NCBI RefSeq assembly: GCF_000741705.1 | Contig: NZ_JGZI01000009.1 | Span: 310,001 to 374,000 of the forward strand | DNA length: 64,000 bases | Reading direction: 5' to 3' | From: Bifidobacterium psychraerophilum | Lineage (GTDB): Bacteria; Actinomycetota; Actinomycetes; Actinomycetales; Bifidobacteriaceae | Translations under genes and position numbers: made by a program | Shown: positions 8,407-49,282 of the stretch, in pieces | Layout of the letters: each line of letters opens with the position of its first letter | Position numbering within the stretch: position 1 is the stretch's first letter | Notes under the pieces: generated by a model | The model's database searches: none | What the model was told of the DNA's origin: nothing | The model's input: only the letters and a program-made list of their open reading frames with translations

Positions 8407-8411
8407 GCAGC

Positions 8412-8447: not shown

Positions 8448-8552
8448 CGTTTGCCGTCTCTTGGGTGGGGAGACCCGCCATCGTTTAACAGTCTGCCTTC
8501 GGATGATCGGGCATATGCCCACCTGGAGAGCGCAGACATATAAGGAGAAACA

Positions 8553-9194: not shown

Positions 9195-9209
9195 TAGCCC
9201 TCTCTGACG

Positions 9210-9303
9210 TGTGCATAGCGCTCACCTTGAGCGCTGCACATGGTCGGGGATCGATGCACGGTATTGTTGAGGCCGGACAGTCACAAGATTGTCCGGCCTC
9301 AAC
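9210..9303 (+). terminator. Tandem hairpins ending the rplQ transcript
   Basis: The first hairpin pairs 9210-9224 with 9228-9240, with a two-base bulge. The second pairs 9266-9278 with 9291-9303 perfectly over 13 bases with a 12-base loop. Neither has a strong T-tract. Two stacked hairpins in a row after a ribosomal operon fit a terminator or RNA-end protection region. Confidence 0.6.
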
Positions 9304-9377
9304 TGTGTCGTGACACCATGGCGTTGCCGTCGCCTCTTCGCGCCGGGCGCGCGTCCGTGTGGAAACGGTATGAAAGA

Positions 9378-10301
9378 ATGGTCGCTGTGACTCGTTTACG
9401 AATAGATTGCGCCTACGACGGCTCCGATTTCCACGGGTGGGCCCGTCAGCCAGGGTTGCGTACGGTGCAGGGCGTGATGGAGGATTGCCTCAACAGGATC
9501 CTGCATGTGATTCAGTCTCCAGGGCTCCATCTGGTTGTGGCTGGGCGTACCGATACCGGAGTGCATGCCAGTAATCAGACCTGCCATCTGGACATCGATG
9601 ACGATGTGCTGGCCCGAGCGATAGGGCATCTGGACATGCAGGCCATACCCGCCCTGGAACTGAGGATGCGCCATGCCCTTCCTGACGATATAGCGATACG
9701 CCGCATCAGCCTGGCACCAGATGGCTTCGATGCCAGATTCTCCGCATTGGAACGACTGTATGTGTACCGGGTGAGTGACGGCTCGACCACCCCAGATCCG
9801 AGGCTGCGGCATTGCGTGACCGCGGTGAGAGGAACGCTCGACATCGATGCGATGAACGAGATGATGGCGATGTGCGTAGGCCTGCACGATTTCGGCTCCT
9901 TCGCGACGCCAAGCCCCGGTGGGACGACCATACGTGAGGTCAAATTCGCCCGGTGGTCCAGAACCCCCGCTTCCCCGAGCCCTTACGACGGCAGCGGCAG
10001 CATCTCGCTCGAGGATGGCGGGTTGATATCGCTGACCATCATCGCGGATGCATTCGCGCGCAGTATGGTGCGTTCATTGGTGAATGTGGCGATACAAATC
10101 GGTCTGGGGAAACGCGAACTGTCCTGGTTCGTTGAAAAACTGAGGCATCCGCGACGCGAAGGCCTCACCGGGCCAGCCGCAGCCGCAGGCCTGACTTTGG
10201 AACATATCGAGTATCCCTCCGACGACCAGCTCGCTGAACGGGCCGAACTCATTCGAGCCAAGCGTCAGCTGCCTGAGAAGGGTGCTCAGCCGCGGACGTA
10301 A
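9378..10301 (+). CDS. truA: tRNA pseudouridine(38-40) synthase
   Basis: TruA converts uridines 38-40 in the tRNA anticodon arm to pseudouridine. The catalytic Asp lies in AGRTDTGVHA, the family signature. Start RLRIDCAYDGSDFHGWARQPG-like is standard; the region DGFDARFSALERLYVYRV is also conserved. I place the start at ATG 9378, giving 307 residues. GTG at 9387 is an alternative with better spacing from GAAAG. An inserted Ser/Pro/Gly-rich segment (TPASPSPYDGSGS) is a local lineage feature. It follows rplQ, the common actinobacterial neighbour. Confidence 0.96.
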   Translation: MVAVTRLRIDCAYDGSDFHGWARQPGLRTVQGVMEDCLNRILHVIQSPGLHLVVAGRTDTGVHASNQTCHLDIDDDVLARAIGHLDMQAIPALELRMRHALPDDIAIRRISLAPDGFDARFSALERLYVYRVSDGSTTPDPRLRHCVTAVRGTLDIDAMNEMMAMCVGLHDFGSFATPSPGGTTIREVKFARWSRTPASPSPYDGSGSISLEDGGLISLTIIADAFARSMVRSLVNVAIQIGLGKRELSWFVEKLRHPRREGLTGPAAAAGLTLEHIEYPSDDQLAERAELIRAKRQLPEKGAQPRT

Positions 10302-10463
10302 CACATCCAGGTGGCACTGGAAACGAAACACGCCTACCCTTGGGGCTAGTCGAGCCATTCGGTTCGGTGCGGCGGCGCGTTGCTCCGCTTCGTATCCGGC
10401 TGCAGCCCAGTCGGATACGCGGGGGTGCCATGCTTCGCCTTCGGCGAGGGAATGGGGCAGGTC

Positions 10464-12644: not shown

Positions 12645-12798
12645 AAGGTACCCGATCGGGGCCGACTTGCCGCGTGCGGGAGCGGGGGATAGGCTAATCG
12701 GGTGTGGATAAGCTCCGATGCGCATGAAGGGCAGTCGGGCTTCGTGCCATGTGCTGCGTATTGCGGATGCCGAGTGGTGATCGGGAAACAGAGGAACA

Positions 12799-13599
12799 TT
12801 GAAGAAACTGGTTTTTGACTATGCGATGAAGCTGAGCTTCAGCTCCCCGGTGACGGATCATCGTTTCCAGCTGCGTTGCGTGCCCGCCTCGGGTCCTCGC
12901 CAGCAGGTCGTCGATGTGAAGGTGAAGGTCACGCCAGACACTGCTTTGGAGACACAGAACGATGCCTTCGATTCCGTGGTGATGACAGGATACGTGCCAC
13001 AGCCGCATGACTCCTTCGAATATTCGGTTACCGGCATCGCCTTCGTCGACAACGATCATACGAAGCCGGAAGACTACAAACCCCTGTATCGCTTCGATTC
13101 CGGGCTGACGATCCCGGGAGCGGCGATCACCGCCCTGATCGAACGGTGCACGGCGATGATGGATGACGGCGGGCGTTCATTGGATAGGCGCGAACAGGCG
13201 GCTTTGGTGATGCAGGAGGTGTACGAGGCCTTCACCTACACCCCGGGTGCCACCACCATCCGCACCACTGCGGAGGAGGCGCTGGAACAAGGCGCCGGCG
13301 TATGCCAGGACTATGCGCATGTGATGCTTGCCGTCTGCAGGCATATCGGTTTGCCCTCACGTTATATCGCCGGTCTGCTCGGCGGCGAAGGGGCCACGCA
13401 CGCCTGGGTTGAAATCTACGACCAGGATCGTTGGGTGGGTTTTGATCCCACCCATAATCGTCCGGTCAATGACGAATACATCACCATCGCCCACGGTCGT
13501 GATTATCGCGATTGCATGCTCGACATCGGTATCTTCTCCGGTGCGAATGTGACGCAGCAGCAGTGGGTGAACGCTTCGGTGCATGAACAGCGCTCCTGA
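12799..13599 (+). CDS. Transglutaminase-like cysteine protease
   Basis: 266 residues. An N-terminal beta domain (Transglut_N, residues 1-90) precedes a papain-like transglutaminase core. The triad is C169 in GAGVCQDYAHVML, H201 in THAWVEIY and D216 in WVGFDPTHN. Bacterial members are usually peptidases or amide hydrolases, not cross-linkers. The start is TTG, with GAGG five bases upstream. It lies 154 bases after the ATP-grasp/alpha-E fusion, the partner it has in many genomes, so the two probably act on the same peptide or amide. No signal peptide is visible, so action is cytoplasmic. Confidence 0.87.
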   Translation: MKKLVFDYAMKLSFSSPVTDHRFQLRCVPASGPRQQVVDVKVKVTPDTALETQNDAFDSVVMTGYVPQPHDSFEYSVTGIAFVDNDHTKPEDYKPLYRFDSGLTIPGAAITALIERCTAMMDDGGRSLDRREQAALVMQEVYEAFTYTPGATTIRTTAEEALEQGAGVCQDYAHVMLAVCRHIGLPSRYIAGLLGGEGATHAWVEIYDQDRWVGFDPTHNRPVNDEYITIAHGRDYRDCMLDIGIFSGANVTQQQWVNASVHEQRS

Positions 13600-13843
13600 T
13601 CGCCGCACACCCGTTTCGACGCGCCGTCATCCTGGACGAACGGGGGTGGTTCTCTGTGCCTGCCCGGCCTCTGCGTGTCGTGCGCCGCTTCGCGGGCTTT
13701 CACTGGAGGAACCCGGGTTGTGGATGCGGTGTCTGAGTTCTGTGGCATAATAGACAAGTTGCTTTGCTGAAGGTGTTGCTTTCGCACGCGGGGATGGTTT
13801 TGCCGTTGTGGTCAGGAAGGGATGCCTGAGGTCGGGTGATGTT

Positions 13844-13932
13844 GGTTGAGTGTCCGAGCGGTCTAAGGAGCACGCCTCGAAAGCGTGTGAGGGCAACCCC
13901 CTCCGAGAGTTCGAATCTCTCCTCAACCGCCA
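13844..13932 (+). tRNA. tRNA-Ser (anticodon CGA), CCA encoded
   Basis: The acceptor stem GGTTGAG at 13844 pairs with CTCAACC at 13922-13928, followed by G and encoded CCA. The anticodon loop reads CTCGAAA between CACGC and GCGTG, giving CGA for UCG codons. A long variable arm typical of tRNA-Ser and the T-loop GTTCGAATC are present. Confidence 0.97.
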
Positions 13933-13934
13933 CC

Positions 13935-13971
13935 AAGGGTTCCGGATTTGTGTCCGGAGCCCTTTTTCTTT
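13935..13971 (+). terminator. Intrinsic terminator of tRNA-Ser
   Basis: Arms 13935-13946 and 13953-13964 pair over 12 bases with one G-U, loop of six, then TTT, C and TTTT. It begins three bases after the tRNA CCA end. Confidence 0.9.
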
Positions 13972-14102
13972 TCGCACCTTCGTGTGCTTCCCCTTCACCC
14001 GTGCCACCCGTTGCCGGCCGCTCCCGGTCCTGTCGCCCTCCTGCTCCGCTTCGCGGATTGTCCTGCATGCTGGCAGGCCATGAGGAGGATACCTGACGCT
14101 CC

Positions 14103-14146
14103 ATAAGTTAAACCATTTGACATAAATGCCGCAGTTGTCTTATGAT
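14103..14146 (+). promoter_or_regulatory. xylA promoter with XylR-like operator
   Basis: TTGACA at 14117-14122 and TATGAT at 14141-14146 are separated by 18 bases, a near-consensus sigma-70 promoter. Immediately upstream and touching the -35 box is GTTAAACCATT (14107-14117), which matches the right half of the AATGGT-AAA-ACCATT palindrome found before xylR. Another partial copy, GCCAAAACCAAT, is at 14172-14183 in the leader. Repression of xylA by the ROK regulator is inferred. Confidence 0.75.
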
Positions 14147-14210
14147 GTGTGCAATGGCAGGCGAGGACGCGTGCCAAAACCAATCGTTTGCATGCAACAA
14201 GGAGCAACAC

Positions 14211-15557
14211 ATGAGTCTGTGGGATGTCGACAAGATCGAATACGTAGGTCGTGAACAGGGTCCGCAGGAATCGCTTGCGTTCCATTACTATGACGCCGAG
14301 CGGGTCGTGGCAGGAAAGAAGATGAAGGACTGGCTGCGTTTCGGCGTCGCATGGTGGCACACCTTCAACCAGGAACTCGTCGATCCCTTCGGGGTCGGCA
14401 CGGCTCAGCGGGGCTATTACCGATACTCGGATCCGATGGATCAGGCGCTCGCCAAGGTCGATTACGCATTCGAGCTCTTCACCAAGCTGGGGGTCGAATA
14501 CTTCTGCTTCCACGATCGTGACATCGCACCCGAGGGGGATACCCTGCGCGAGACGAATGCGAATCTTGACAAGGTCGTGGACCGGATCGAGGGGCATATG
14601 AAATCCACGGGCGTCAAACTGCTGTGGAACACCTCCTCGCTGTTCACCAACCCACGTTTCGTATCAGGAGCCGCGACCTCGCCCTTCGCCGATATCTTCG
14701 CCTATGCCGGTGGCCAGCTCAAGAAGAGCCTGGAGATCGGCAAGCGTCTGGGTGCCGAGAATTATGTGTTCTGGGGAGGGCGTGAAGGCTACGAGAACCT
14801 GTGGAACACCCAGATGAAGCGAGAGACGGATCATATCGCCCGTTTCTTCCACCTGTGCGCGGATTACGCTGATGAGATCGGTTTCGATGCCCAGTTCCTG
14901 ATCGAGCCGAAGCCGAAGGAGCCCACGCTGCACCAATATGATTTCGATGCGGCCACGGCGATCGAGTTCCTCCGTGCCAACGACCTCACCGATGTGTTCA
15001 AGCTCAATCTCGAAGGCAACCATGCCAATCTGGCCGGTCACACCTACCAGCATGAGATTCGTGTGGCCCGTGAATCCGGTTTCCTCGGTTCCCTGGACGC
15101 CAATCAGGGCGACAAGCTCATCGGATGGGATATGGATGAATTCCCGACCGATCTGTACGAAACCGTTGCGGTGATGTGGGAGGTGCTGGCGGCTGGCGGC
15201 ATCGGTCCCCACGGCGGTCTGAACTTCGATGCCAAGCCACGACGTACGTCCTTCTATGCCGAGGATCTGTTCCGCACCCACGTTGCGGGTATGGACGCCT
15301 ACGCCGCCGGTCTGCTGGTCGCGGCGAAGATGCATGAGGACAAGTACATCGAGAATCTGCAGGATGAACGCTACAGCTCCTACGATTCCGGCATCGGCAA
15401 GCAGATCGAGGACGGTACGGTGACATCCCTTGCACAGCTCGAAGACTATGCGATCGACAAGCCCCAGTCCGAGCTGATCGAAGCCACCAAATCCGATCAT
15501 CTTGAGTCCGTCAAGGCCACGGTGAACAACTACATGGTGGATGCCCTCTCCGAGTGA
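14211..15557 (+). CDS. xylA: Xylose isomerase
   Basis: Converts D-xylose to D-xylulose, the first step of bifidobacterial xylose use. The 448-residue class II TIM-barrel has the metal and catalytic regions [10 protein letters not shown] (catalytic His), [20 protein letters not shown] and [11 protein letters not shown], and [11 protein letters not shown] near the end. AAGGAG six bases before ATG 14211 sets the start; [13 protein letters not shown] is the expected N-terminus. Its own promoter and partial XylR sites lie upstream, and a large hairpin follows. xylB sits about 8 kb away in the same locus. Confidence 0.98.
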
Positions 15558-15569
15558 CTTTGTTCCGGT

Positions 15570-15665
15570 GACCCCGGCCGGGGTCTTATACAGGCCTGCG
15601 TGCACCGCACCTTGAGATGGAGGCGACTTCTGTCGCGCATGATCTCAAGGTGCGGTGCACGCAGG
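15570..15665. terminator. Palindrome plus 24-bp perfect inverted repeat between xylA and the lacI-type gene
   Basis: A 16-base GC palindrome (15570-15585) is followed by a perfect 24-base inverted repeat, arms 15595-15618 and 15642-15665. The 23-base loop holds a small GCGAC/GTCGC stem. It fills the gap between two convergent genes, so it most likely terminates both transcripts, although neither side has a clear T-tract. Confidence 0.75.
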
Positions 15666-15678
15666 TTATCTGACGCCT

Positions 15679-16716
15679 TTATTCGCCGCGTAGGGCACAG
15701 GTGCTGTCGCGCACCATCAAGGTCGTAGGCATGATGATGTGTTTATCCACCGTGTCTCCATGTTCGGCACCCATGATCATCCGCGTCGCGGCTGCGGCCA
15801 TATCCTGGAGGGGTTGGCGCACCGTCGTCAGTGAAGGCCCCAGGTACGAAGCGGTCTGCACATCATCGAAACCCACGACGGAGAGATCCTCAGGGATGCG
15901 AATACCCAATTGTCTCGCCGCTTCATACACTCCCATGGACTGAAGATCGCTGCCTGCGAAGATCGCGCTGGGTCTGATCTCCGGATTCTCCAGAAGCGCC
16001 ATGGCCTGGGCGTATCCGCCCGCAGTGGTGAAATCGCCTTCCGTGATGAGGCTTGGATCGCTGTTCAGGCCTTTCTCCGATAGCGCCGCCGCATAGCCGT
16101 CGAGGCGCGCCCGTGAGCACATCATGTCGTCGGGCCCCGTGATGATGCCGATGCGTGTATGCCCCAGGGAGAGCAGATGCCTGGTGGCGCTCAGCCCGCC
16201 GGTCCAGTTGTCCGCCTGGACGGACATGTCGTCAGGTGCGGGATCGCCGGAAGGATCGAATACGACATAGGCGATGTGGCGTGACTGTAATCTCTCGCGT
16301 TCCTGGGCGGTGAGGTTGGAGAAGATCAGGATGGCCCCGAGTGGCTGTCGCTGAACGATGTCATCCGCCCATGAGCTGTCCGGGTGGATTCTGTCCCCGC
16401 TTTCCGTGACCGTGATGGTGACATCGTATGATTTAGCCGCTCTGAGCGCACCTCTCAGCACTTCAAGTGACCAGAGGTTCTCGAATGTCTGGAATACGAC
16501 TTCGATGTTTCGGTTCACGGGCCTTCGTCTTGTCGGCTGGGAGTACCCGCTGCGTTGCAGAGCCTCCGCTATGACCTTTTTGGTGAGCGGGGAGACATCG
16601 GATCTGCCGTTGAGCGCCTTGGAGACCGTTGCCAGCGAGTATCCGGTCTGCTCGGCGATATCGATCAGGCGCACGGTATGGTGCGCTGGGGGTGTGGTCT
16701 GCGGCAAAGATCCCAT
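15679..16716 (-). CDS. LacI-family transcriptional regulator of the xyloside locus
   Basis: 345 residues. The DNA-binding helix-turn-helix with hinge is at the N-terminus (VRLIDIAEQTGYSLATVSKA LNG region, about 15-65), followed by a periplasmic-binding-protein-like sugar domain ending GIRIPEDLSVVGFDD, typical of LacI. Start ATG has GGAG seven bases upstream. The gene lies between xylA and a sugar ABC transporter. TTTCGAAA palindromes occur in its own promoter spacer and after the transporter promoter, so it probably represses both until a xylo-oligosaccharide or xylose binds. The effector is not known. Confidence 0.92.
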   Translation of the reverse strand: MGSLPQTTPPAHHTVRLIDIAEQTGYSLATVSKALNGRSDVSPLTKKVIAEALQRSGYSQPTRRRPVNRNIEVVFQTFENLWSLEVLRGALRAAKSYDVTITVTESGDRIHPDSSWADDIVQRQPLGAILIFSNLTAQERERLQSRHIAYVVFDPSGDPAPDDMSVQADNWTGGLSATRHLLSLGHTRIGIITGPDDMMCSRARLDGYAAALSEKGLNSDPSLITEGDFTTAGGYAQAMALLENPEIRPSAIFAGSDLQSMGVYEAARQLGIRIPEDLSVVGFDDVQTASYLGPSLTTVRQPLQDMAAAATRMIMGAEHGDTVDKHIIMPTTLMVRDSTCALRGE

Positions 16717-16743
16717 ATGTCATCTCCAACTATCGTTTTTCTC

Positions 16744-16772
16744 ATCGTATTTCGAAACTTTCGAGCTGTCAA
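16744..16772 (-). promoter_or_regulatory. Promoter of the lacI-type gene with operator filling the spacer
   Basis: On the minus strand TTGACA (16772-16767) and TACGAT (16749-16744) are exactly 17 bases apart. The spacer (16750-16766) is made of the two linked palindromes TTTCGAAA and CTTTCGAG. A repressor bound here would sit between the -35 and -10 boxes, so autoregulation is likely. Confidence 0.82.
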
Positions 16773-16807
16773 AAAAGTAGTATGTTGAGTCAGGCTGCTG
16801 TCGTAGA

Positions 16808-16822
16808 TATGCCAAAACCATT
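16808..16822. promoter_or_regulatory. Partial XylR-like site in the lacI/transporter divergent region
   Basis: TATGCCAAAACCATT matches 12 of 15 positions of the palindrome before xylR (AATGGT-AAA-ACCATT). It lies upstream of both divergent promoters. This suggests the ROK regulator also influences the transporter, but it is a weaker match. Confidence 0.5.
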
Positions 16823-16867
16823 GGAATAAAGCCATTTCATGAGGAAACTGCATCAGAATTATATAAT

Positions 16868-16941
16868 TTGACGAATTTACTTAACGGGAATTATACTGAG
16901 ATATGTCGAAACAACTACAGGTTTTCGAAAAAGTTTCGAAA
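16868..16941 (+). promoter_or_regulatory. Transporter promoter with tandem LacI-type operators
   Basis: TTGACG (16868-16873) and TATACT (16892-16897) have an 18-base spacer. About 25-45 bases downstream of the -10 are two palindromes, TTTTCGAAAA (16922-16931) and TTTCGAAA (16934-16941), with centres 11 bases apart, one helical turn. A related TGTCGAAACA overlaps the expected start of transcription. The rest of the 424-base gap (to 17140) is an untranslated leader in which I see no gene; the binding-protein start has GGAAAGAGC before it. Confidence 0.8.
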
Positions 16942-17140
16942 ATCAGTTCAAAGGAGAGCTGGTTCCGACTGCAAGGCAATCCGCATCACACCCAAGGCGA
17001 ATTGGGAATGACGGCGTAATCAACGGGGTTCACGTCGGATTCGCCCCACCAAGGTTCCTCGACAAACAACAGGTTCCTGACACATAAGCAGATGATCCGG
17101 TGAAGGCGCATATCGAGCGCATGTTGGAAAAGGAAAGAGC

Positions 17141-18430
17141 ATGAAGGTGAAGAAGGCACAGACGATTGCGGCGGCCGCACTCGCGGTCATGAGCTGCGTA
17201 GGGCTGTCGGCCTGCGGCGGCAGCGATAGCAATGCCGATGGCAAGGTCGAGGTGACCGTATGGCACAACTCGACGGCGGGCGATGGCAAGAAGTATTGGG
17301 AGGATGCGGCCGCCGCCTATGAGAAACAGAATCCCAATGTCGACATCAAAATCGAGGCGATCCAGAACGAGGACATGGATGGCAAGCTCCAGACGGCTTT
17401 GCAGGATCCGAACTCGGCACCTGACATCTTCCTCGCCCGTGGTGGCCAGAAACTCGCTGATGTGGTCGAAGCCGGGCAGGCGATGGATCTGAGCGACAAG
17501 GTTTCGGACACGGTGAAGACGCAGATGGCGAGCTCGCTCTCGGCCTACACCATCGATGGGAAACTCTACGCCGTGCCCCAGGCGGTGCAGCCAGGAGGTA
17601 TGTGGTATTCCAAGGATCTCTTCGCCAAGGCGGGCATTACGCAGACGCCCAAAACCTGGGATGAGTTCAAGGCGGCCATTGCCAAACTCAAGGCCGCGGG
17701 CATCACGCCGATAGCGGTCGGTGGCAAGGACGCGTGGCCCGCCGCCCACTGGTGGTACTGGTTCGCCTTGAGGGAATGCTCGGCGGACGTATTCGCCAAA
17801 GCGCAGAAGAGCAAGGACTTCAGCGATGACTGCTGGAGCAGAACCGGGAAGGATGTGGAGGATCTGCTGGGTCTGGACGCTTTCAATGAAGGTTTCCTCA
17901 CCACCCCCGCCCAACAGGGTGCGAATTCTTCCGCCGGTCTGCTGGCCAATCACATGGCTGCCATGGAGCTTATGGGGGGTTGGGAGGCCGGTGTGGTCCG
18001 CGACCTGACACCGGATAAGAAGGATCTGCCGGATCTGGGCTTCTTCGCGTTCCCCACCGTCGAAGGCGGCGAAGGTGATCCGAGCGCGGTCATGGGTGGC
18101 GTCGATGCGATGGCGGTTGGCAGCTGGGCGCCGAGCGAAGCGGTCGACTTCCTCAACTTCATCGCCGAGAAAGGGCAGCAGGAACAGTACGCCAACGCAT
18201 TCTCGACCATACCCGCATCCAAGGAGGCCCAATCGGTCGTCACCAATGATGCGCTGAAGCAGGAACTTGCGGTCTACGACCAGGCATCCTCGGTCTCATT
18301 GTGGCTTGACACCGTCTTCGGTCAGAACATCGGCAACGCACTGAACGAAGGCGTCGTGAATCTGATGGCCGGCAAAGGAAGCTCCGCGGACATCATCAAA
18401 GGCGTCGAAAGCGCCGCCGCCAAAGGCTGA
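17141..18430 (+). CDS. Sugar ABC transporter substrate-binding lipoprotein
   Basis: 429 residues. The signal peptide ends in a lipobox, LSACGG, so Cys is lipidated and the protein is tethered outside the membrane. The mature part is a family 1 extracellular solute-binding protein: VEVTVWHNSTAGDGKKYWED, the core segment SAPDIFLARGG, and the later AVGGKDAWPA and MGGWEAGVV blocks. Position between a xylose-type regulator and a GH43 beta-xylosidase points to xylo-oligosaccharides or xylosides as ligand. No ATPase gene is nearby, so a shared MsiK-type ATPase elsewhere probably powers the system. Confidence 0.92.
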   Translation: MKVKKAQTIAAAALAVMSCVGLSACGGSDSNADGKVEVTVWHNSTAGDGKKYWEDAAAAYEKQNPNVDIKIEAIQNEDMDGKLQTALQDPNSAPDIFLARGGQKLADVVEAGQAMDLSDKVSDTVKTQMASSLSAYTIDGKLYAVPQAVQPGGMWYSKDLFAKAGITQTPKTWDEFKAAIAKLKAAGITPIAVGGKDAWPAAHWWYWFALRECSADVFAKAQKSKDFSDDCWSRTGKDVEDLLGLDAFNEGFLTTPAQQGANSSAGLLANHMAAMELMGGWEAGVVRDLTPDKKDLPDLGFFAFPTVEGGEGDPSAVMGGVDAMAVGSWAPSEAVDFLNFIAEKGQQEQYANAFSTIPASKEAQSVVTNDALKQELAVYDQASSVSLWLDTVFGQNIGNALNEGVVNLMAGKGSSADIIKGVESAAAKG

Positions 18431-36974: not shown

Positions 36975-38105
36975 CTATTCCGTCTGCGCTTCGGTAGCGC
37001 TGAACCAGTCCATGATGAAAACCGCGTCATGCAGATCAATATAGCCATCCGCGTCAATGGGGGCGTCGATCTGCAGATTCCCCGAAACATGCAACGAGGC
37101 TTGGGCGTATCGGCCACCGGAGGATGGGGGAGGTGATAAACGCAATCTCCCCGACGCTTTCAGATGGGGTTTGCGTTGCGCATCCCGCCGGATCGAGGGC
37201 TGTGTGCCATGCGAGGGTGCTGACTGTGCAGCCTCCCGCACCTGTGGGCGTTCGGAGGTATCGGAGGATGACGGAATCGGCGTCACCGGGTCTGTGACCT
37301 CGCCCGGCTCACGTGGCTGGGCGGAAGGGGTTTCGGATGTTCTTTCCGCATGGTGTTCGGCGCTTGCGCTCGTGGGGGCACCCACGGAAGACCTCTGCGT
37401 CATCTGTGACGCCGTGCCTCCACTTGCGCCCGACAGCTCCTGCCTGATCTCGTCCGGCAGGTCAAGACCCTCGGCATACGGTGATTCAAGCAAGGACTGC
37501 CACCCCTCGAGTGGAAGATAGCCGGATTCCTTGCCCTCACCGACGCGCGAGGCGTAGCCGTGGGCGAGATCATCCACCTTCTCGTTGAACTCGTTGCCCG
37601 CATGTCCCTTGACCCATTTGAACTTCACCGATCCGGATCGGCCCGATATCTCCGCATCGATGGCTTTGATCAGTGGCGCGTTCTTCACGCTCTGCTTCTT
37701 CGAGTTCTTCCAGCCGTTCCGTTTCCAGCCATGCACCCATTTGGTGGAGCAGTTGATCGCGTATTGCGAGTCGCTTTCGATGATCAGATCCTGGGATCCC
37801 GGATGGGCGCGGAGCGCCTGGAGCACGGCGCAGAGTTCACCGATCTGGTTGGTGCCGTTACTCGCACCGCCGGCATCGCTGCCGCCACCCTGATGATCGG
37901 CCCATCCCCAGCCCATCGGTCCGTTCGGATTCCCCAGCGCACTGCCATCCGTGGATACCGTCAGAGGTGAATCCGAACGGACCGTTCGCGACCCGTCGGG
38001 GCCGCTCACCTCTGCTCGGGAAAGACCGCCGGTCTTTCCCGTTGACGCTTCGGCATTCGGATTCCCCAATGCGCTGCCATCCGTCGATACGGTGAGTTCC
38101 CCCAT
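36975..38105 (-). CDS. rnhA: Ribonuclease HI with duplicated first strand and long C-terminal extension
   Basis: 376 residues. Cleaves RNA in RNA-DNA hybrids. The catalytic acidic residues are D in LTVSTDGSALGNPN, E in GELCAVLQAL, D in IIESDSQYA and the later KGHAGNEFNEKVDDLA. The 14-residue strand LTVSTDGSALGNPN occurs twice (residues 4-17 and 48-61), only the second followed by the normal GPMGWGW. After residue 200 is a Ser/Pro/Thr-rich disordered tail, then a short C-terminal block (ASLHVSGNLQIDAPIDADGY) of unknown role. ATG 38105 has AGGAG upstream. E. coli RNase HI is about 155 residues. Confidence 0.92.
   Translation of the reverse strand: MGELTVSTDGSALGNPNAEASTGKTGGLSRAEVSGPDGSRTVRSDSPLTVSTDGSALGNPNGPMGWGWADHQGGGSDAGGASNGTNQIGELCAVLQALRAHPGSQDLIIESDSQYAINCSTKWVHGWKRNGWKNSKKQSVKNAPLIKAIDAEISGRSGSVKFKWVKGHAGNEFNEKVDDLAHGYASRVGEGKESGYLPLEGWQSLLESPYAEGLDLPDEIRQELSGASGGTASQMTQRSSVGAPTSASAEHHAERTSETPSAQPREPGEVTDPVTPIPSSSDTSERPQVREAAQSAPSHGTQPSIRRDAQRKPHLKASGRLRLSPPPSSGGRYAQASLHVSGNLQIDAPIDADGYIDLHDAVFIMDWFSATEAQTE
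37923..38096 (-). repeat. Intragenic duplication in rnhA
   Basis: Two 42-base copies, 38055-38096 and 37923-37964, encode the same 14 residues. They differ at seven positions, all synonymous. A perfect 10-base hairpin (38018-38027 with 38031-38040) lies in the 90-base spacer between them. Confidence 0.9.
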
Positions 38106-38309
38106 GCGTCCAAATCTCCTCGTCTGCTTGCCTGCGGCGACGTCTGCCCGGTGCGGCCCACTGCACTGCTGCGCTGTAGCGCGAGCAGGTGTACCGCCCC
38201 AGGTTCTGACGGTAGCTATATAAAAGGGCCTGCCGTGCGTCTCGGCCTGGTGATGGTACCAGCTTCGAACACGCACACGACAAGCCCTCGGAATCGCTTG
38301 AGGCGCGAA

Positions 38310-42951: not shown

Positions 42952-43316
42952 TCATTTCCGGGTCCATATGATTGCCCATCGATGAGCCGAGCCCTCTCTG
43001 AAATAAACCATTAATAAAGCACCGTCGCTTCGTAACTACTCCGTAACAGTGTGACCGCGATTCAAGCCCCGCCCTCTGCAAGAATTCAAATCACAGACGG
43101 CAATAGGGTGTGTGCACCGTTCTCAACAGGGGGTTCACGGGCGATGCGGGGTGATGGGCAGTATGCGTTCACCGTCGCTCCCAAAGGGCTTGATACCGAG
43201 GTACGGAGCGCAGCCCGGAGGGCTGGGGCCGGGTGGAACCCCGCATGAGCCGTCTGCATGGAATGGTCCGCACGAGACCGTCTGCACAGAATCGTCCATA
43301 CAGAATCGGGGTCACG
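42952..43316 (+). promoter_or_regulatory. Long intergenic leader before the kinase-permease-phospho-lyase operon
   Basis: 365 bases hold no credible gene. It contains direct repeats such as CGTAAC (twice near 43030-43047) and ACAGAATCG (twice near 43285-43308), and a GC-rich segment near 43200-43246 with complementary blocks (GCAGCCC, GGGCTG) that could fold. A promoter and GntR operator are expected here, but I cannot name either with confidence. Confidence 0.4.
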
Positions 43317-44384
43317 ATGTCAGAAGTTATGCGTGTGCTTGATGAACCGGAGCAATCCGTCAGTCTCAATGCATTCAGCGATCTGAAGAAGGGGAACCCT
43401 GCGCCATACTGGCTCTTCCGAGGGGTGTGCGCATGCTGGGGGCTTGACACCGCGACTACCACACTGGATCTGATCACGGTTTCGGAAAACGCCACCTTCC
43501 TATTGCGCATAGACGGGGCCGACGAAGGCGTTGTCAGGGTATCCCAGCCGGGATATGTCGGCGGGCCGGAAGCGGTGGCGTCGGAGATCCTATGGCTGAA
43601 CGCCCTGCACGACGTCGATGGGGTGAATCTGATCAACCCGGTGCCGACCATCCGTGGCACCTTCGTCGGTACGGTGCGCGACGGCAACGGTGTGGGCTGG
43701 ACGGTCATCTCCACGAAATTCGTCAAGGGGACCGTGCTGGAGGACATGGACAACCCGGCACCGTATTACACCACCATCGGCGCTTGGGCCGCCAAATTCC
43801 ACGAGCATTCCCGCCACTGGAAGCAGCCCAGGGGATTCAAACGCTTCAACTGGGACATCTCCGATATGGTGGGGCCTTCGCCTCGCTGGGGCAGGTGGGA
43901 GAACGCCGATCTCAACGATGATGAGCGCGCGTTATGCGAACAGGCATTGTGGAAGGCGATGGATGTGGTGATGAAGACGCCACGCACGCAGCAGACCTGG
44001 GGTCTGATTCACGCCGATCTGCGTCCCTCCAACATCATCAAAGGGGAGGATGGCACGCTGACCATCATCGATTTCGACGATGCCGGATACAGCTGGTACC
44101 TCTATGACTACGCCTCCTCCCTGAGTTTCATTGAACACATGCCCTACGCACCTGAACTCGCGAAATCCTGGGTCAAGGGATACACGGAGGTATCCGGGGC
44201 TTTCAGTGGTGCACAGCTTGAGGTGATGTCCGCCCTGTCGATGATCCGTCGTCTGCAGATGCTCGGATGGACGACCAATCACCGTGAGGATGCACTTCCC
44301 GAGGAGCTGGCCACCACACAGGCCAGCGGATCCGTGCAATGCGCCCGCAACTATCTCGGAAATTCCCTGTGGTTGCTTCAGTGA
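43317..44384 (+). CDS. APH-family small-molecule kinase (predicted amino-alcohol kinase)
   Basis: 355 residues of the APH/choline-kinase fold. The catalytic loop is LIHADLRPSNII (H232, D234, N239) and the metal Asp is D252 in IIDFDDAGY. The ATP-binding N-lobe has FLLRIDGADEGVVRVSQP. The nearest recognisable relatives are hydroxylysine kinase and homoserine or ethanolamine kinase-like proteins, not antibiotic resistance enzymes. The next genes are an amine permease and a phospho-lyase-type PLP enzyme, so the job is probably phosphorylating an amino alcohol before phosphate elimination. ATG 43317 has GGGG upstream; a frame extension to 43233 is not supported. Confidence 0.82.
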   Translation: MSEVMRVLDEPEQSVSLNAFSDLKKGNPAPYWLFRGVCACWGLDTATTTLDLITVSENATFLLRIDGADEGVVRVSQPGYVGGPEAVASEILWLNALHDVDGVNLINPVPTIRGTFVGTVRDGNGVGWTVISTKFVKGTVLEDMDNPAPYYTTIGAWAAKFHEHSRHWKQPRGFKRFNWDISDMVGPSPRWGRWENADLNDDERALCEQALWKAMDVVMKTPRTQQTWGLIHADLRPSNIIKGEDGTLTIIDFDDAGYSWYLYDYASSLSFIEHMPYAPELAKSWVKGYTEVSGAFSGAQLEVMSALSMIRRLQMLGWTTNHREDALPEELATTQASGSVQCARNYLGNSLWLLQ

Positions 44385-44531
44385 GGGGATTGCCGGCTCT
44401 CCCGGGCGGCATCCCTCATGACGGCGGCGGGCAATCCTCGGCGTCCTCCAACGGTCCGGCATCAATGAGCGTCGATGCGCGGCTACTCCAACACAACAGC
44501 AGTGACTACAAGAGCAGGGGAAGGTGAAGGC

Positions 44532-46031
44532 ATGTCGACAACAGTGAGCGAAGACACGTCAAAAGGCCTCGGTGGCGTCACATACGTGACCACCGATAAG
44601 GATTACTTCAAGAAACGGCAACTGAAGCGGACCACAGGTGCATTCGGACTGTGGGCAATAGGTATCTCGGCCGTGATCTCCGGTGATTTCTCCGGTTGGA
44701 ACGGAGGCATCGCCCAGGCGGGCTGGGGCGGTATGCTGATCGCCGCGCTGGTGGTCTACACGATGTATGTGCTGATGCTCAATGCGATCAGTGAGATGGC
44801 CTCGGCCATGCCCCACACGGGTGGGGCGTATTCCTTCGCCAGGGCCGCCATGGGTCCTTGGGGAGGGTTCTTCACCGGATTGGCCGAAACGATTGAATAT
44901 GTGATGACGGCTGCCGTCGTCGTCTATTTCTCATCCGCCTACGCCGACGCGATCCTCTCCGACCTGGTCGGATACTCTCTTGACGCCCACGGTCTGATGT
45001 GGGTCTGGTGGCTTGCGCTCTATGTGATATTCGTGGCGATCAACTGGGCTGGTGCCGAGACCTCATTCCGTTTCGCGCAGATCGTGTCGATAGCCGCCTT
45101 GGCGATCGTGGCCATTTTCGGCATCGGTGCCTTTATCGCGGGCAAAGTCGATTTCGGCAGCCTGCTGAATATCGCACCCACTGCTGGTGGCTCGGCATTC
45201 CTTCCCTTCGGAGTGGGTGCCATCTTCTACGCGATGCCTTTCGCGATGTGGCTGTTCCTTGGCATAGAGCAGCTTCCTTTGGCGGCTGAGGAAGTCAGGG
45301 AACCTGAGCGCAACATTCCGAAGTCCTCGCGTCTGTGCATCTTCACGCTTGGCCTTTCCGCCCTGATCATCGTCTTCCTCAATCCTGCCGTTGTGGGCTC
45401 CAAAGCGCTCGCCGCTTCCGACGAACCGCTTCTGGATGGGTACCGTGCCATTCTGCCGGGCAATCTTGCGGCTGTGCTGTCAGCCTTCGCGCTGATCGGT
45501 CTGCTCGCCTCGGTGCAGGGCATCATGTTCGCCTATGGACGCAATCTCTACTCGCTGTCCCGTGCCGGTTACTATCCGGCCTTCCTCTCGCTCACCGGCA
45601 AGAAGAAGACGCCGTATTGGGGTCTGATCGTTGGCGCCGTCTTTGGGTTCGCAGCCCTGTTCATCGTCGCGTATGGTGGTCAAGGAGCAGGTTCCGTGGT
45701 GTTGAACATCGCGGTGTGGGGTGCGGTGCTCGCGTACCTGTTGCAGATGATCTCCTATGTGATACTGCGTAAGCGCATGCCGAACATCAAGAGACCATTC
45801 GTCAGCAGATTCGGCGTCCCCGGCGCGGTGATAGCGGGACTTGTCTCTTTGGTGATCTTCATAGCCGTGCTGCTCAACCCTGATTATCGTCTGGCCGTGT
45901 ATGTGATGGTCGTGATCTATGCGATCGCTCTGGTGTTCTTCGCGGCGTATGGACGCAAGCATCTTGTACTCTCACCGGAGGAGGAGTTCGCGGCATCAGG
46001 AGGGGAAGCGGTGTATAAAACCGAAGAGTAG
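44532..46031 (+). CDS. APC-family amine permease, ethanolamine-permease-like
   Basis: 499 residues with twelve predicted helices. Helix 1 reads AIGISAVISGDFSGWNGGIA, and the segment following is MPHTGGAYSFARAAMGPWGG; both blocks strongly resemble the ethanolamine permease (Eat/TIGR00908) subfamily from memory. Residues AEEVREPERNIPKSSRLC in the cytoplasmic loop are also typical. AAGGTGAAGG precedes ATG 44532, 147 bases after the kinase stop. Amino acid or hydroxylysine uptake cannot be excluded. Confidence 0.85.
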   Translation: MSTTVSEDTSKGLGGVTYVTTDKDYFKKRQLKRTTGAFGLWAIGISAVISGDFSGWNGGIAQAGWGGMLIAALVVYTMYVLMLNAISEMASAMPHTGGAYSFARAAMGPWGGFFTGLAETIEYVMTAAVVVYFSSAYADAILSDLVGYSLDAHGLMWVWWLALYVIFVAINWAGAETSFRFAQIVSIAALAIVAIFGIGAFIAGKVDFGSLLNIAPTAGGSAFLPFGVGAIFYAMPFAMWLFLGIEQLPLAAEEVREPERNIPKSSRLCIFTLGLSALIIVFLNPAVVGSKALAASDEPLLDGYRAILPGNLAAVLSAFALIGLLASVQGIMFAYGRNLYSLSRAGYYPAFLSLTGKKKTPYWGLIVGAVFGFAALFIVAYGGQGAGSVVLNIAVWGAVLAYLLQMISYVILRKRMPNIKRPFVSRFGVPGAVIAGLVSLVIFIAVLLNPDYRLAVYVMVVIYAIALVFFAAYGRKHLVLSPEEEFAASGGEAVYKTEE

Positions 46032-46121
46032 ACATCATCCGATGTGTGAGCGGTGCATGAGATGCGTCTGCCGCGCAACGATGATCATGATTTGCAATAC
46101 CAACGAGACAGAGAAGGCAAC

Positions 46122-47486
46122 ATGGCAGTTCGTTCGACGATTATGGATACGAATAGCTTCAGACCGGGGATGGAAGAGGGACTCGATCCGGAAACACGGG
46201 CAATGGCCCACGAGCGGGAGGTTCTGGGACCGGCTTACCGCTTGTTCTACCGTAAGCCGGTGCATCTGGTGAAGGGTAGGGGAAGCAGACTCTGGGACGC
46301 GGACGGCGTCGAATACCTTGATGTGTACAACAACGTCGCTTCGGTCGGGCATTGCCACCCGAGGGTTGTGGAGGCCATCACCCGCCAGGCCTCGATGTTG
46401 AACACCCACACCCGCTACCTGCATGAGAACGTGCTGGGTTATGCCGAGGACATCCTTTCGACGATGCCCGATGAGGTCAATCGCATCATGTTCCAGTGCA
46501 CGGGCTCCGAGGCCAATGACCTCGCGATCCGGGTCGCACAGACCTATACCGGCGGTGAAGGCGTGATCGTGACACACGAGGCTTACCACGGCAATTCGGC
46601 GTTGACGTCGAAGCTCTCACCGGCTTTGGGGACCGCCCAGACCTTGGGTCTGACAATGCGGATGATTCCGACTCCGGACACCTATCGCGTCGATATCGAT
46701 GGCACGACGGGCGGAGACTGCACTCCTGAGGCCTTCGGTGCGTGGATGGCCGGTGAGCTCAAGAAGCAGGTGGAGGATATGCAGCGTCACGGCATACCCT
46801 TCGCCGCCTTCCTCGCCGATTCCATCTTCTCTTCGGACGGCGTGTATCCCGGTCCTGTGGGTTATCTGAAGCCGGTCATCGATATGGTCCACGAACTCGG
46901 GGGCGTCTTCATCGCCGATGAGGTGCAGCCCGGATTCACCCGCACCGGGGATGCCTTCTGGGGATTCCAGCGCCATGGTGTGGTGCCCGATCTGGTCACG
47001 TCGGGCAAGCCGATGGCCAATGGTCTGCCGACATCGCTGATGGCCGCGAGGTCCGAGGTCCTCGAACCTTTTGCGGGCTCGATTCCGTACTTCAACACCT
47101 TCGGCGGCAATCCGGTCTGTATGGCGGCCTCGCAGGCGACCCTGGACGTCATGCGTGATGAGGATACGATGGGCAACGCCAAAAGGGTCGGCGGCATATT
47201 CATGCAGGCCCTTCGAGCCTTCCAGGCCGAACATCCATGCATAGGCGATCTGCGCGGTACCGGTCTGTACATCGCATGCGAAATCGTGAAACCCGGCACC
47301 AAGGAGGCCGATCAGCAGACGGCCCTGGATATCCTCGAAGCGCTCAGGGACAATCACGTGCTGACCTCGGTGTGCGGCCGTTACGGCAACATCCTCAAAC
47401 TGCGGCCTCCGCTGGTGTTCAGCGAGGATGATGTGGACTGGTTCTCCGATGCATTCACCACGACATTGCGCCAACTCGGCATCTGA
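46122..47486 (+). CDS. Class III PLP enzyme of the phospho-lyase (AGXT2L/PHYKPL) type
   Basis: 454 residues, fold-type I. PLP Lys is K296 in VTSGKPMANGLP; D of FIADEVQPGF holds the pyridine. Many blocks match human ethanolamine-phosphate phospho-lyase and phosphohydroxylysine phospho-lyase: VGHCHPRVV, LNTHTRYLHEN, TPDTYR, YFNTFGGNPVC, GNAKRVG and LKLRPPLVF. Those enzymes eliminate phosphate and ammonia from an O-phospho amino alcohol, giving an aldehyde. The upstream kinase and permease make that role far more likely here than transamination. GAGAAGG lies before ATG 46122. The exact substrate is unproven. Confidence 0.86.
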   Translation: MAVRSTIMDTNSFRPGMEEGLDPETRAMAHEREVLGPAYRLFYRKPVHLVKGRGSRLWDADGVEYLDVYNNVASVGHCHPRVVEAITRQASMLNTHTRYLHENVLGYAEDILSTMPDEVNRIMFQCTGSEANDLAIRVAQTYTGGEGVIVTHEAYHGNSALTSKLSPALGTAQTLGLTMRMIPTPDTYRVDIDGTTGGDCTPEAFGAWMAGELKKQVEDMQRHGIPFAAFLADSIFSSDGVYPGPVGYLKPVIDMVHELGGVFIADEVQPGFTRTGDAFWGFQRHGVVPDLVTSGKPMANGLPTSLMAARSEVLEPFAGSIPYFNTFGGNPVCMAASQATLDVMRDEDTMGNAKRVGGIFMQALRAFQAEHPCIGDLRGTGLYIACEIVKPGTKEADQQTALDILEALRDNHVLTSVCGRYGNILKLRPPLVFSEDDVDWFSDAFTTTLRQLGI

Positions 47487-47757
47487 GGTGACGCAAGGGC
47501 CGGTCTGGTCAGGCAGGCTGGACCGACATCGATTCGGGCGATACAGATGGCATGGCGGCGTAAGGCCCTCAACCGTCCGCACCGCCTGGTGCCATATACA
47601 AGCCGTCACCGTCCGCCGTCATGAAGGATGCCGCCGTGTCGTCTGATGGTAATGCGGTCGTATTACCGTCAGAGGGAACGGGAATCGCATGCGGCGCGTC
47701 GGCTCGGTGCACCGGGCTTGTTCGCTTCGAGCTCGGAAGGGGGCGGTGGCTGCGATT

Positions 47758-48597
47758 ATGACGGCATCATCACGTATGGAACCGGGCGGCGTCCCGCAGG
47801 GCAAACGCGGTCGGGCGAAGCGCTCGGACAATATCCGTCTGCTCAGGAATCTCATTCAGGAGAGGGAGCTGCTGCCCGGTGAGCGTCTGGGCTCCGAACG
47901 TGAGATCGCATCACTGCTGGGAACGACCCGCGCCGATCTGCGGCTTGCCTTGGCGGCGTTGGAATCCACCCATGAGGTGATTCGTCGCATCGGACGGGGT
48001 GGCGGCATCATCGTGTCGGACAGCCGGCTTGAACGCAATATCAATACCGTTGAGTCCCTGCCGATCATCGCCAGAAGGCAGGGGCTCGTACTGCAATCGG
48101 AGGTTCATTCGGCTGTTATCGCGCCGGCCTCCCAGTCCGATGTGCGCTTACTGGAACTCGACCGTTATGTGCAGGGCGGTATGCAGAACATCTACGACAT
48201 CACCCGCGTGAGGTATGTGGACGGGCGCCCATTGTCTCTTGAGACCAGCCATCTGCCATCGGATATCTTCCCCTCCTTTCTGACGAAGGATCTCACCACC
48301 TCCTTCTACGCACGTTTCGCCTCCGATTATGGGATCCACCCTTCGGTCGTCGATGAAACCCTGGAATCCATCGAAGCGTCCGAGCAGCAGGCACGGCTGC
48401 TGCAAGTCGATGGGGGCACGCCGCTGATACGCATCCGTCGCATCGCACGCACCAGTGACGGCCGACCCTTTGAGCGGGCCACCGATGTCTATATCGCCTC
48501 GCGCATGCGCTTCACCATGCATCACTCGGGGTATGTGCGGCTATCGGCCACATCGGGATCGGATGCATCCGCCGAGCAGATGCGTAGACAGCAATGA
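47758..48597 (+). CDS. GntR-family regulator with UTRA domain
   Basis: About 279 residues. The N-terminal winged helix (LIQERELLPGERLGSEREIA, then TRADLRLALAALES) is GntR type. The C-terminal UTRA fold ends in LIRIRRIARTSDGRPFERAT, typical of HutC-subfamily sensors that bind a small molecule. It follows the phospho-lyase in the same orientation, 271 bases away, so it likely controls that operon, with the amine or its phosphate as possible effector. The start is uncertain: ATG 47758 or GTG 47746. Confidence 0.83.
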   Translation: MTASSRMEPGGVPQGKRGRAKRSDNIRLLRNLIQERELLPGERLGSEREIASLLGTTRADLRLALAALESTHEVIRRIGRGGGIIVSDSRLERNINTVESLPIIARRQGLVLQSEVHSAVIAPASQSDVRLLELDRYVQGGMQNIYDITRVRYVDGRPLSLETSHLPSDIFPSFLTKDLTTSFYARFASDYGIHPSVVDETLESIEASEQQARLLQVDGGTPLIRIRRIARTSDGRPFERATDVYIASRMRFTMHHSGYVRLSATSGSDASAEQMRRQQ

Positions 48598-48667: not shown

Positions 48668-49282
48668 ATGATGGGCGGCATGCGTGATGTGATCTTCGAC
48701 TTTTGCGGGGTGCTGCTGGATTGGCGGCCGCGACTGACGCTGGAAGGCCAGTACCCCCAAGGCGTCATCGATATGTTCTTCGACGACAATGATCCAAGGG
48801 GTTTTGACTATTACGACCGCAAGTCGGATGAAGGGTGGACGCAGGAGCGCATCCTGGAGGAATACGAACAGTCGCACGGGCCTGCCGTGGCCTGGGTGTT
48901 CCGCACCTATTTCGAGCATTTCCGGAAGTCCCTGTACGGCATGATCCCCGGCATGCCGGAGCTGCTCACGGAACTCGACGCGCGGCACATACGGCTTTGG
49001 GGCCTGACGAATTTCACCACCGAGTATGTGGACGAGGTATATGGACGATTCCCCGAGTTCTCACTGTTACGGGATGTCGTGGTCTCCTCGCAGGAGCATC
49101 TGGTGAAGCCCGACCCGAGGATCTTCGAGCTGGCGGCCGAACGCTTCGGCGTGGCGGTCGAGTCATGTGTCTTCGTCGATGACACCCTCGCCAATGCCGA
49201 GGCCGCGGACGAGGTCGGCATGCAGGGCATCCACTTCACCGGTGCCGATGATCTGCGTGCACGTCTGCTGGGCGCCGGGTGA
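48668..49282 (+). CDS. HAD-family hydrolase (phosphatase-like)
   Basis: 204 residues. Motif I is MRDVIFDFCGVLLDW, where the nucleophile is D in FDFCG; the usual second Asp of DxD is replaced by Cys, as in some YihX/epoxide-hydrolase-type HADs. Motif II is WGLTNF, motif III Lys in HLVKPDP, motif IV FVDDTLAN. It resembles alpha-D-glucose-1-phosphate phosphatase-type HADs. It stands alone, 70 bases after the GntR gene. ATGs at 48668, 48671 and 48680 compete. Confidence 0.88.
   Translation: MMGGMRDVIFDFCGVLLDWRPRLTLEGQYPQGVIDMFFDDNDPRGFDYYDRKSDEGWTQERILEEYEQSHGPAVAWVFRTYFEHFRKSLYGMIPGMPELLTELDARHIRLWGLTNFTTEYVDEVYGRFPEFSLLRDVVVSSQEHLVKPDPRIFELAAERFGVAVESCVFVDDTLANAEAADEVGMQGIHFTGADDLRARLLGAG

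What the first reader, a model, noticed from the sequence alone, without database searches (positions are those of the whole stretch)
43317..48597. Kinase, amine permease, phospho-lyase and GntR regulator: a predicted compact amino-alcohol catabolic operon
Seen: APH-family kinase with intact HADLRPSN and DFD, then a permease with the ISGDFSGWNGG and PHTGGAYSFARAAMGPWGG blocks of ethanolamine permeases, then a class III PLP enzyme whose blocks match ethanolamine-phosphate and phosphohydroxylysine phospho-lyases, then a UTRA-type GntR gene. Known: such phospho-lyases remove phosphate and ammonia from O-phospho amino alcohols; similar kinase plus phospho-lyase routes were described biochemically in Erwinia and Pseudomonas. 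Inference: import of ethanolamine (or hydroxylysine or aminopropanol), phosphorylation, elimination to an aldehyde, ammonia and phosphate, without the B12-dependent Eut microcompartment. I am not aware of this being described in a bifidobacterium.
Basis: partly seen in the sequence, partly recalled or inferred. Interest (0 to 1): 0.8.

Follow-up and report, generated by a model that had tools for sequence, protein, structure and literature searches.

The report
Bifidobacterial amino-alcohol breakdown operon
Four neighbouring genes in a Bifidobacterium probably let it take up a small amino alcohol, most likely ethanolamine, add a phosphate and split the product into ammonia and an aldehyde, without the vitamin B12 enzyme or protein shell that other bacteria use for ethanolamine.

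Summary
Kinase (43317-44384), permease (44532-46031), class III PLP enzyme (46122-47486) and GntR-UTRA regulator (47689-48597) lie in one direction. The PLP enzyme groups with phospholyases (human ETNPPL 6tor, Arthrobacter A1RDF1 5g4i), not with aminotransferases. The kinase's nearest solved structure, by sequence and fold, is 6ef6, 'microcompartment-associated aminopropanol kinase'. The permease fits the ethanolamine-permease model best but misses its cut-off. New here: of 189 Bifidobacteriaceae genomes, 37 hold this enzyme at 66% identity or more; 33 of them hold this kinase, 3 a different, choline-kinase-type kinase instead, and the last has a broken enzyme. A GTTAC-N6-GTAAC site lies upstream of the kinase in 19 of 22 loci (9 of the 11 not looked at when I chose the motif), and upstream of the enzyme in 3 loci with the other kinase. 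The lyase also occurs beside ABC-importer/metallophosphoesterase and amidase genes, suggesting interchangeable supply routes. No shell protein or EutB was found in the genome. Substrate is inferred: ethanolamine most likely, (S)-1-amino-2-propanol the main rival.

The parts
43032..43047 (.). putative operator GTAAC-TACTCC-GTAAC (consensus GTTAC-N6-GTAAC) upstream of the kinase
   Evidence: Only match in the 64-kb window at <=1 mismatch; within about 330 bp upstream of the kinase in 19 of 22 loci; 0 of 22 upstream of the permease, 0 of 26 upstream of the regulator, 6 of 26 upstream of the PLP gene
43317..44384 (+). APH-family kinase, predicted small amino-alcohol kinase (P0001 from its third residue)
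   Evidence: PF01636 73.4 bits; nearest solved structure 6ef6 aminopropanol kinase by sequence (5.7e-50) and by fold (Foldseek rank 1, 3.7e-23)
44532..46031 (+). APC-family permease, ethanolamine-permease-like
   Evidence: TIGR00908 322.1 bits (cut-off 381.75), next NCBIfam model 136.3
46122..47486 (+). class III PLP enzyme, predicted O-phospho-amino-alcohol phospholyase
   Evidence: 6tor 338 bits, 5g4i 292 bits, next 187.6; phospholyase group; group-specific residues
47689..48597 (+). GntR/UTRA transcriptional regulator, presumed regulator of the operon
   Evidence: PF07702 107.6, PF00392 34.6 bits; a homologue stands next to the lyase in loci of both kinase types

Best explanation
A B12-free, shell-free catabolic operon for a small 2-amino alcohol, most probably ethanolamine. 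The APC permease imports the amine; the APH-type kinase phosphorylates its hydroxyl with ATP; the PLP enzyme eliminates phosphate and then ammonia, leaving an aldehyde (acetaldehyde from ethanolamine); the chromosomal AdhE can reduce it to ethanol or oxidise it to acetyl-CoA. The GntR-UTRA protein controls the unit through a GTTAC-N6-GTAAC site upstream of the kinase. By ATP accounting (one ATP spent per amine, at most half an ATP per amine regained by dismutation through AdhE and acetate kinase) it would serve as a nitrogen source or electron sink, not an energy source. Shown by computation: gene content, enzyme groups, no shell or EutB match, presence of AdhE, kinase-lyase co-occurrence, conserved site. 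Inferred: substrate, direction of transport, the regulator-site pairing, single-transcript structure, physiological role. The confidence is for the kinase-plus-phospholyase mechanism on a small amino alcohol; for ethanolamine itself I put about 0.55.
For: PLP enzyme nearest to 6tor and 5g4i, on one side of a branch with both (49 rows, SH-aLRT 99) with 9 aminotransferase-type rows on the other, and with residues N70, N71, R98, F324, K426 shared by all 49 and P297, N300 by 94-96%. Kinase nearest to 6ef6, 32% identity, TM 0.80/0.87. Permease best model is ethanolamine permease; a Chimaeribacter plasmid has a kinase, a full TIGR00908 permease (609.5 bits) and a 60%-identical lyase together. Co-occurrence: of 37 family genomes with the lyase at >=66% identity, 33 have this kinase and 3 others only the choline/ethanolamine-kinase-family one; among the other 152, one has a kinase match (partial, G373, which has a 56% lyase) and none the choline-type. 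Kinase and lyase domains are fused in 5 of 5 long proteins scanned, from actinomycetes, planctomycetes and a Bacteroidota MAG. No BMC, no EutB; AdhE 1218.9 bits over its 951 cut-off. Operator.
Against: The permease is below the ethanolamine-permease cut-off. The kinase's nearest solved relative is a 1-amino-2-propanol kinase, not an ethanolamine kinase. The group may also hold 5-phosphohydroxylysine lyases (recalled; none was in my set). Public annotation calls most listed relatives 'aspartate aminotransferase family protein'. No aldehyde dehydrogenase sits in the operon. Co-occurrence partly reflects that the genes are neighbours and that the genomes are related; G386's kinase match has a TGA inside. 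The operator form was chosen after viewing an alignment of 11 loci; it is missing upstream of K in L009, L019 and L028, is not found in the Kc-type loci L030 and L128, and one-mismatch matches upstream of P also occur in three K-type loci (L011, L013, L027). The one other exact site in the genome (C5:9974) lies by no obviously related gene, and the reversed control pattern is commoner genome-wide.
Confidence: 0.8

Rival explanations
1. Same mechanism, but the substrate is (S)-1-amino-2-propanol and the product propionaldehyde, as proposed for the RMM/Aaum microcompartment.
For: Kinase nearest to 6ef6; seven loci that I take as RMM-type by gene content (L127, L129-L134) carry a homologous kinase (183-210 bits, six with the L105 kinase as best query, one with P0001) and a homologous GntR (115-143 bits); the RMM compartment is proposed to take aminoacetone to propionyl-CoA (PMC8156839, passage).
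Against: The class III enzyme of three of these loci scores only 82-105 bits with P0003, none was listed in the other four, and the two put in the tree fall outside the phospholyase group; no SDR in the operon; permease and alternative kinase point to ethanolamine/choline families; the two solved lyases of the group are named ethanolamine-phosphate phospho-lyase and phospholyase.
Confidence: 0.2
2. Hydroxylysine catabolism: a hydroxylysine kinase and a 5-phosphohydroxylysine phospholyase with an amino-acid permease.
For: The permease matches the amino-acid permease families of Pfam; the vertebrate pair is an APH kinase plus a class III lyase (recalled).
Against: No hydroxylysine-specific relative appeared; the permease fits amino-acid transporter models far worse than ethanolamine permease (136.3 bits and less); the alternative kinase partner is of the choline/ethanolamine-kinase family.
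Confidence: 0.05
3. Another short amino alcohol (alaninol, serinol or similar), for example released from amides.
For: Amidase-family genes stand beside the lyase in choline-kinase-type loci and beside the paralogous pair on contig C11; the A. aurescens lyase lies on a plasmid next to an aldehyde dehydrogenase gene.
Against: The window's own operon has no amidase; nothing points to one such compound.
Confidence: 0.1
4. The PLP enzyme is an ordinary class III aminotransferase and the kinase neighbour is incidental.
For: The annotation of its plasmid relatives is mostly 'aspartate aminotransferase family protein'.
Against: co-occurrence with a kinase and fusion to a kinase domain elsewhere.
Confidence: 0.03

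Closest known systems
O-phosphoethanolamine phospholyases (EC 4.2.3.2): human ETNPPL (6tor), Arthrobacter/Paenarthrobacter aurescens TC1 A1RDF1 (5g4i, 5g4j)
   Same: Same side of the tree, same group-specific residues; the A. aurescens gene also lies near a kinase ('putative homoserine kinase', 120 bits to P0001), a permease and a regulator. That A1RDF1 acts on phosphoethanolamine is recalled; its paper is not held
   Different: A. aurescens has TetR and AraC regulators nearby, a less similar permease (no TIGR00908 hit at 1e-12) and an aldehyde dehydrogenase next door; the human enzyme is not in an operon
RMM/Aaum microcompartment of Mycobacterium and Rhodococcus (1-amino-2-propanol / aminoacetone)
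   Same: APH kinase and GntR regulator are homologous; a permease and a class III PLP enzyme are also reported for these loci (PMC4207490, PMC6620236, passages)
   Different: No shell protein in this genome, no aldehyde dehydrogenase or SDR in the operon; the RMM class III enzymes tested are outside this group
Kinase-lyase fusion proteins (NCBIfam PRK06148 / PRK06149)
   Same: C-terminal part of PRK06148 is the best NCBIfam match of P0003 (415.9 bits, under the whole-protein cut-off 1128); such fusions hold an APH domain
   Different: Here two separate genes with a permease gene between them
Amino-alcohol kinase / phospho-lyase routes of Erwinia and Pseudomonas (1970s biochemistry, recalled)
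   Same: Predicted chemistry
   Different: Genes there not compared; no paper on them seen here

Membership tests
PLP phospholyase group (ETNPPL / A1RDF1) | closer to characterised phospholyases than to class III aminotransferases | tested here: met
   338 and 292 bits vs 187.6 or less
PLP phospholyase group (ETNPPL / A1RDF1) | shares a supported group with both, aminotransferases outside | tested here: met
   SH-aLRT 99, 49 of 58 rows inside; quick tree without bootstrap, root at midpoint, most of the 9 outside rows are long branches and the program warns of joins among them
PLP phospholyase group (ETNPPL / A1RDF1) | group-specific residues | tested here: met
   N70, N71, R98, F324, K426 identical in all 49 inside rows; P297 and N300 in 94-96%
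PLP phospholyase group (ETNPPL / A1RDF1) | releases phosphate and ammonia from O-phosphoethanolamine | not testable with these tools
   needs an assay
TIGR00908 ethanolamine permease | score over the curated cut-off 381.75 bits | tested here: not met
   322.1 bits, best of 22 models, next 136.3
APH-family aminopropanol kinase (6ef6) | APH fold, catalytic HxDxxxxN and DFD, nearest solved structure 6ef6 | tested here: met
   (model pLDDT 90.5)
APH-family aminopropanol kinase (6ef6) | activity on (S)-1-amino-2-propanol | not testable with these tools
   needs an assay
RMM/Aaum microcompartment | BMC shell proteins | tested here: not met
   0 PF00936 matches in the genome; E. coli and S. elongatus ring among the 14 controls
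RMM/Aaum microcompartment | orthologous class III enzyme | tested here: not met
   RMM-type enzymes score 82-105 bits with P0003 in three loci; the two put in the tree fall outside its group
Eut pathway | EutB ethanolamine ammonia-lyase | tested here: not met
   0 PF06751 matches in the genome; E. coli rings among the controls
PhnR phosphonate regulator (TIGR03337) | score over the cut-off 296.75 bits | tested here: not met
   96.2 bits, best of 14 models

The most novel reading that the evidence does not exclude
In bifidobacteria one phospholyase with its GntR regulator is a hub into which different supply modules are plugged: (i) APC permease plus APH kinase for the free amine, (ii) amidase plus Na+ symporter plus choline-kinase-type kinase for amides such as N-acylethanolamines, (iii) an aminoethylphosphonate-type ABC importer plus a metallophosphoesterase for phosphoesters such as glycerophosphoethanolamine or phosphoethanolamine. 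The same operator can be kept when the module is swapped. A related actinobacterial microcompartment locus encloses the module (ii) version. Ethanolamine from host lipids would thus be a nitrogen source or electron sink for animal-associated bifidobacteria, without B12.
Probability: 0.4. Interest if true: 0.65.

Novelty: new variant of a known kind. Interest (0 to 1): 0.5.

Why it matters
Ethanolamine from host membranes is a contested nutrient in animal guts, and its use is usually equated with the B12-dependent Eut pathway (recalled). A compact B12-free route present in about a fifth of the 189 Bifidobacteriaceae genomes searched (37) would mean that surveys scoring only eut genes miss users of amino alcohols. 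It also gives a testable function to genes now named 'aspartate aminotransferase family protein' and 'phosphotransferase', and an operator that can be tested with a gel shift.

Tried and rejected
Ordinary aminotransferase: rejected. Membership of the RMM microcompartment: rejected, no shell gene and a different class III enzyme. Palindrome GGTAAT-N8-ATTACC upstream of the regulator (47648-47667): with perfect arms only the window has it among 26 regulator upstream regions, so not taken as an operator. HAD gene 48680-49282: not counted as part of the set; it neighbours the slot, but in several relatives it is absent or apart from the module. A genome-wide regulon of the site: not supported; two distinct exact sites in 2.6 Mb, reversed control commoner, and the second lies by no related gene. 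Structure of the third gene X of the alternative module: model too poor (pLDDT 34.8), not searched; its APH and choline-kinase scores are just under the Pfam cut-offs. Papers on A1RDF1, hydroxylysine kinase and aminopropanol kinase themselves are not held; their content is recalled or taken from citing papers. Literature: of my ten searches, three named bifidobacteria: one search found 0 papers, one search found 65 (20 listed, seen as titles and abstract starts, none opened), one search found 3 (same, none opened). No title or abstract start describes this route in bifidobacteria; this covers the held open-licence library only.
Full report
What is there. The window lies on contig C9 of a 2.6-Mb genome. 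Four same-strand genes follow serS (named from recall) and a tRNA-Ser: kinase K 43317-44384, permease T 44532-46031, PLP enzyme P 46122-47486, GntR-UTRA regulator R 47689-48597. No terminator-like site is listed in the gaps, though the scan's counts do not exceed shuffles.

The PLP enzyme. Among solved structures the best matches are 6tor (ethanolamine-phosphate phospho-lyase, 338 bits) and 5g4i (phospholyase A1RDF1, 292 bits); the next are a racemase (187.6) and a GABA transaminase (186.4). A tree of 58 sequences puts P with both among 49 rows on one side of a branch (SH-aLRT 99); the 9 rows on the other side are five other class III enzymes of the same genome, two from other phyla and two from RMM-type loci (quick method, with long branches outside and a midpoint root). 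N70, N71, R98, F324 and K426 are identical in all 49 and rare outside; at the K426 column 5 of 9 outside rows have arginine. P differs from both solved lyases at S74 (His in both) and C126-T127 (Asn-Ser in both), changes shared with many other inside rows. So it is a phospholyase by descent; the substrate is not thereby fixed.

The kinase. PF01636 73.4 bits. Sequence and fold searches both put 6ef6, 'Structure of the microcompartment-associated aminopropanol kinase', first (5.7e-50; E 3.7e-23, TM 0.80/0.87, next 2.9e-16). A characterisation paper on the M. smegmatis (S)-1-amino-2-propanol kinase was not available; its title is seen in the reference list of PMC8007038 (passages). That it describes 6ef6 is recalled.

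The permease is best described by TIGR00908 ethanolamine permease but misses the cut-off, 322.1 against 381.75; the regulator resembles PhnR most, far below cut-off.

Context elsewhere. On a Chimaeribacter arupi plasmid a phosphotransferase, an annotated ethanolamine permease (609.5 bits to TIGR00908) and a 60%-identical lyase lie together. On Paenarthrobacter aurescens plasmid pTC2 the A1RDF1 gene lies near a kinase, a permease and an aldehyde dehydrogenase. Of 88 fetched loci of at least 9 kb with a P of at least 275 bits, 73 have a kinase similar to one of four query kinases within 7 kb (41 within 500 bp), 8 have P within an open frame over 700 aa, 80 have one or the other, and 8 have neither: L020, L024 (kinase 7.4 kb away), L074, L097, L098, L099, L128 (its kinase is on the adjoining stretch L149), L142. 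These loci were chosen by P and overlap in species, so they are not independent. Five of the eight long frames were scanned and all five hold APH plus Aminotran_3; one of the others (L100) is annotated as two genes.

Co-occurrence in the family. In 189 Bifidobacteriaceae genomes, 47 have a P match at 1e-85 or better. My reading of that list: 37 have a best match of at least 66% identity. Of these, 33 have K at 1e-60 or better (in G386 with a TGA inside the match); the other four are G435, G467 and G468, which have the choline-kinase-type kinase Kc, and G414, whose P match is partial (residues 2-216) with a stop inside. G017 and G466 have both kinases. Of the other 152, one (G373, whose P is 56% identical) has a partial K, and none has Kc. 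So Kc, a different branch of the same kinase superfamily (PF01633 70.6 bits, PF01636 47.9), stands in where K is missing. Physical linkage and shared ancestry account for part of this.

Supply modules. With the same P (76-95% identity) three settings recur: K plus T; amidase, X, Kc and a Na+-symporter-family protein, divergent from P-R (B. thermophilum L010, Pseudoscardovia suis L022, L054; also L037, which has K and T too, and, without X or R recognised, L030); and an ABC importer with a metallophosphoesterase (B. subtile L024, B. minimum L029, L020, and L143, whose P is 95% identical to the window's). The L024 ABC parts score best with or among 2-aminoethylphosphonate transporter models, all below cut-off (ATPase 388.3 vs 457.7, permease 57.9 vs 247, binding protein 55.2 vs 310). 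Lachnospira eligens has ABC genes, P and another metallophosphoesterase in a row. The window has no ABC set beside its operon; a 41%-identical metallophosphoesterase sits on contig C2 with no ABC gene recognised next to it. That these modules deliver ethanolamine from free, amide and phosphoester forms is inference.

Operator. An alignment of kinase upstream regions from 11 loci suggested GTTAC-N6-GTAAC, in the form seen in L143 and L144. With at most one mismatch it occurs once in the 64-kb window (43032-43047) and upstream of K in 17 of the 20 loci other than those two (misses L009, L019, L028). Nine of the 20 were in the alignment that I had looked at; among the 11 that were not, 9 have it (recount). 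The best of 659 other palindromes of the same letters with spacers 2-12 reaches 6 of 20. It is absent upstream of T (0 of 22) and R (0 of 26). In L010, L022 and L054, Kc-type loci, it lies upstream of P (two sites in L022), but L030 and L128 have none, and P upstream regions of three K-type loci (L011, L013, L027) also hold one-mismatch matches (6 of 26 in all). Species are related, so counts are not independent. The likeliest reader of the site is R, not shown.

Aldehyde handling. AdhE is present (NF010378 1218.9 bits, cut-off 951); no shell gene and no EutB. The ATP balance is my own reasoning from established biochemistry.

Known versus new. The chemistry and both enzyme families are known. 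RMM loci were described with a phosphotransferase, permease and GntR, their class III enzyme being read as an aminotransferase (PMC4207490 and PMC6620236, passages). I found no report of this route in bifidobacteria in the held library, with the limits given under Tried and rejected. Hence: new variant of a known kind.

Noticed in passing
L103 (G000:C11) 8298-17436: The same genome has a second kinase-lyase pair: amidase, amidohydrolase, MFS transporter, Zn alcohol dehydrogenase, APH kinase and a 45%-identical lyase in one row; the set recurs in whole or part in other bifidobacteria (L063, L067, L079, L106, L141).
   Followed up: partly
L149 11259-12500 and L128 1135-12298 (G155, same class): A microcompartment locus with a close lyase (422 bits), an AdhE/EutE-like aldehyde dehydrogenase, an amidase-like gene, an SSF symporter, GntR and a choline-kinase-type kinase: it looks like the enclosed version of the alternative bifidobacterial module, and unlike RMM-type loci with their distant class III enzyme.
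   Followed up: partly
L010 6334-7383 (-): 350-aa protein X beside the choline-kinase-type kinase: APH/choline-kinase matches just under cut-off, with HGDGAASN where kinases have HxDxxxxN; perhaps a second or inactive kinase.
   Followed up: partly
L074 6819-9621: In one Bifidobacterium MAG the lyase is truncated and the kinase match is a short, weak remnant (40 bits) while the metallophosphoesterase is long and strong (927 bits): the pair seems to decay together.
   Followed up: no
L030: A contig labelled Atopobiaceae carries a 76%-identical, bifidobacterial-type lyase with the choline-kinase module: transfer or binning error.
   Followed up: no
window 36975-38276 (-): RNase H-like protein (named from recall) in which TVSTDGSALGNPN appears twice, 44 residues apart: a partial internal duplication.
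   Followed up: no
L109 (G000:C7) 1-1602: A second AdhE-like sequence, in two frames (316 and at least 216 aa) near the start of a contig: possibly a broken or misassembled second copy.
   Followed up: no
G000:C5:9974-9989: The only other exact GTWAC-N6-GTAAC site in the genome, a perfect match near an MFS-like transporter gene; role unknown.
   Followed up: partly
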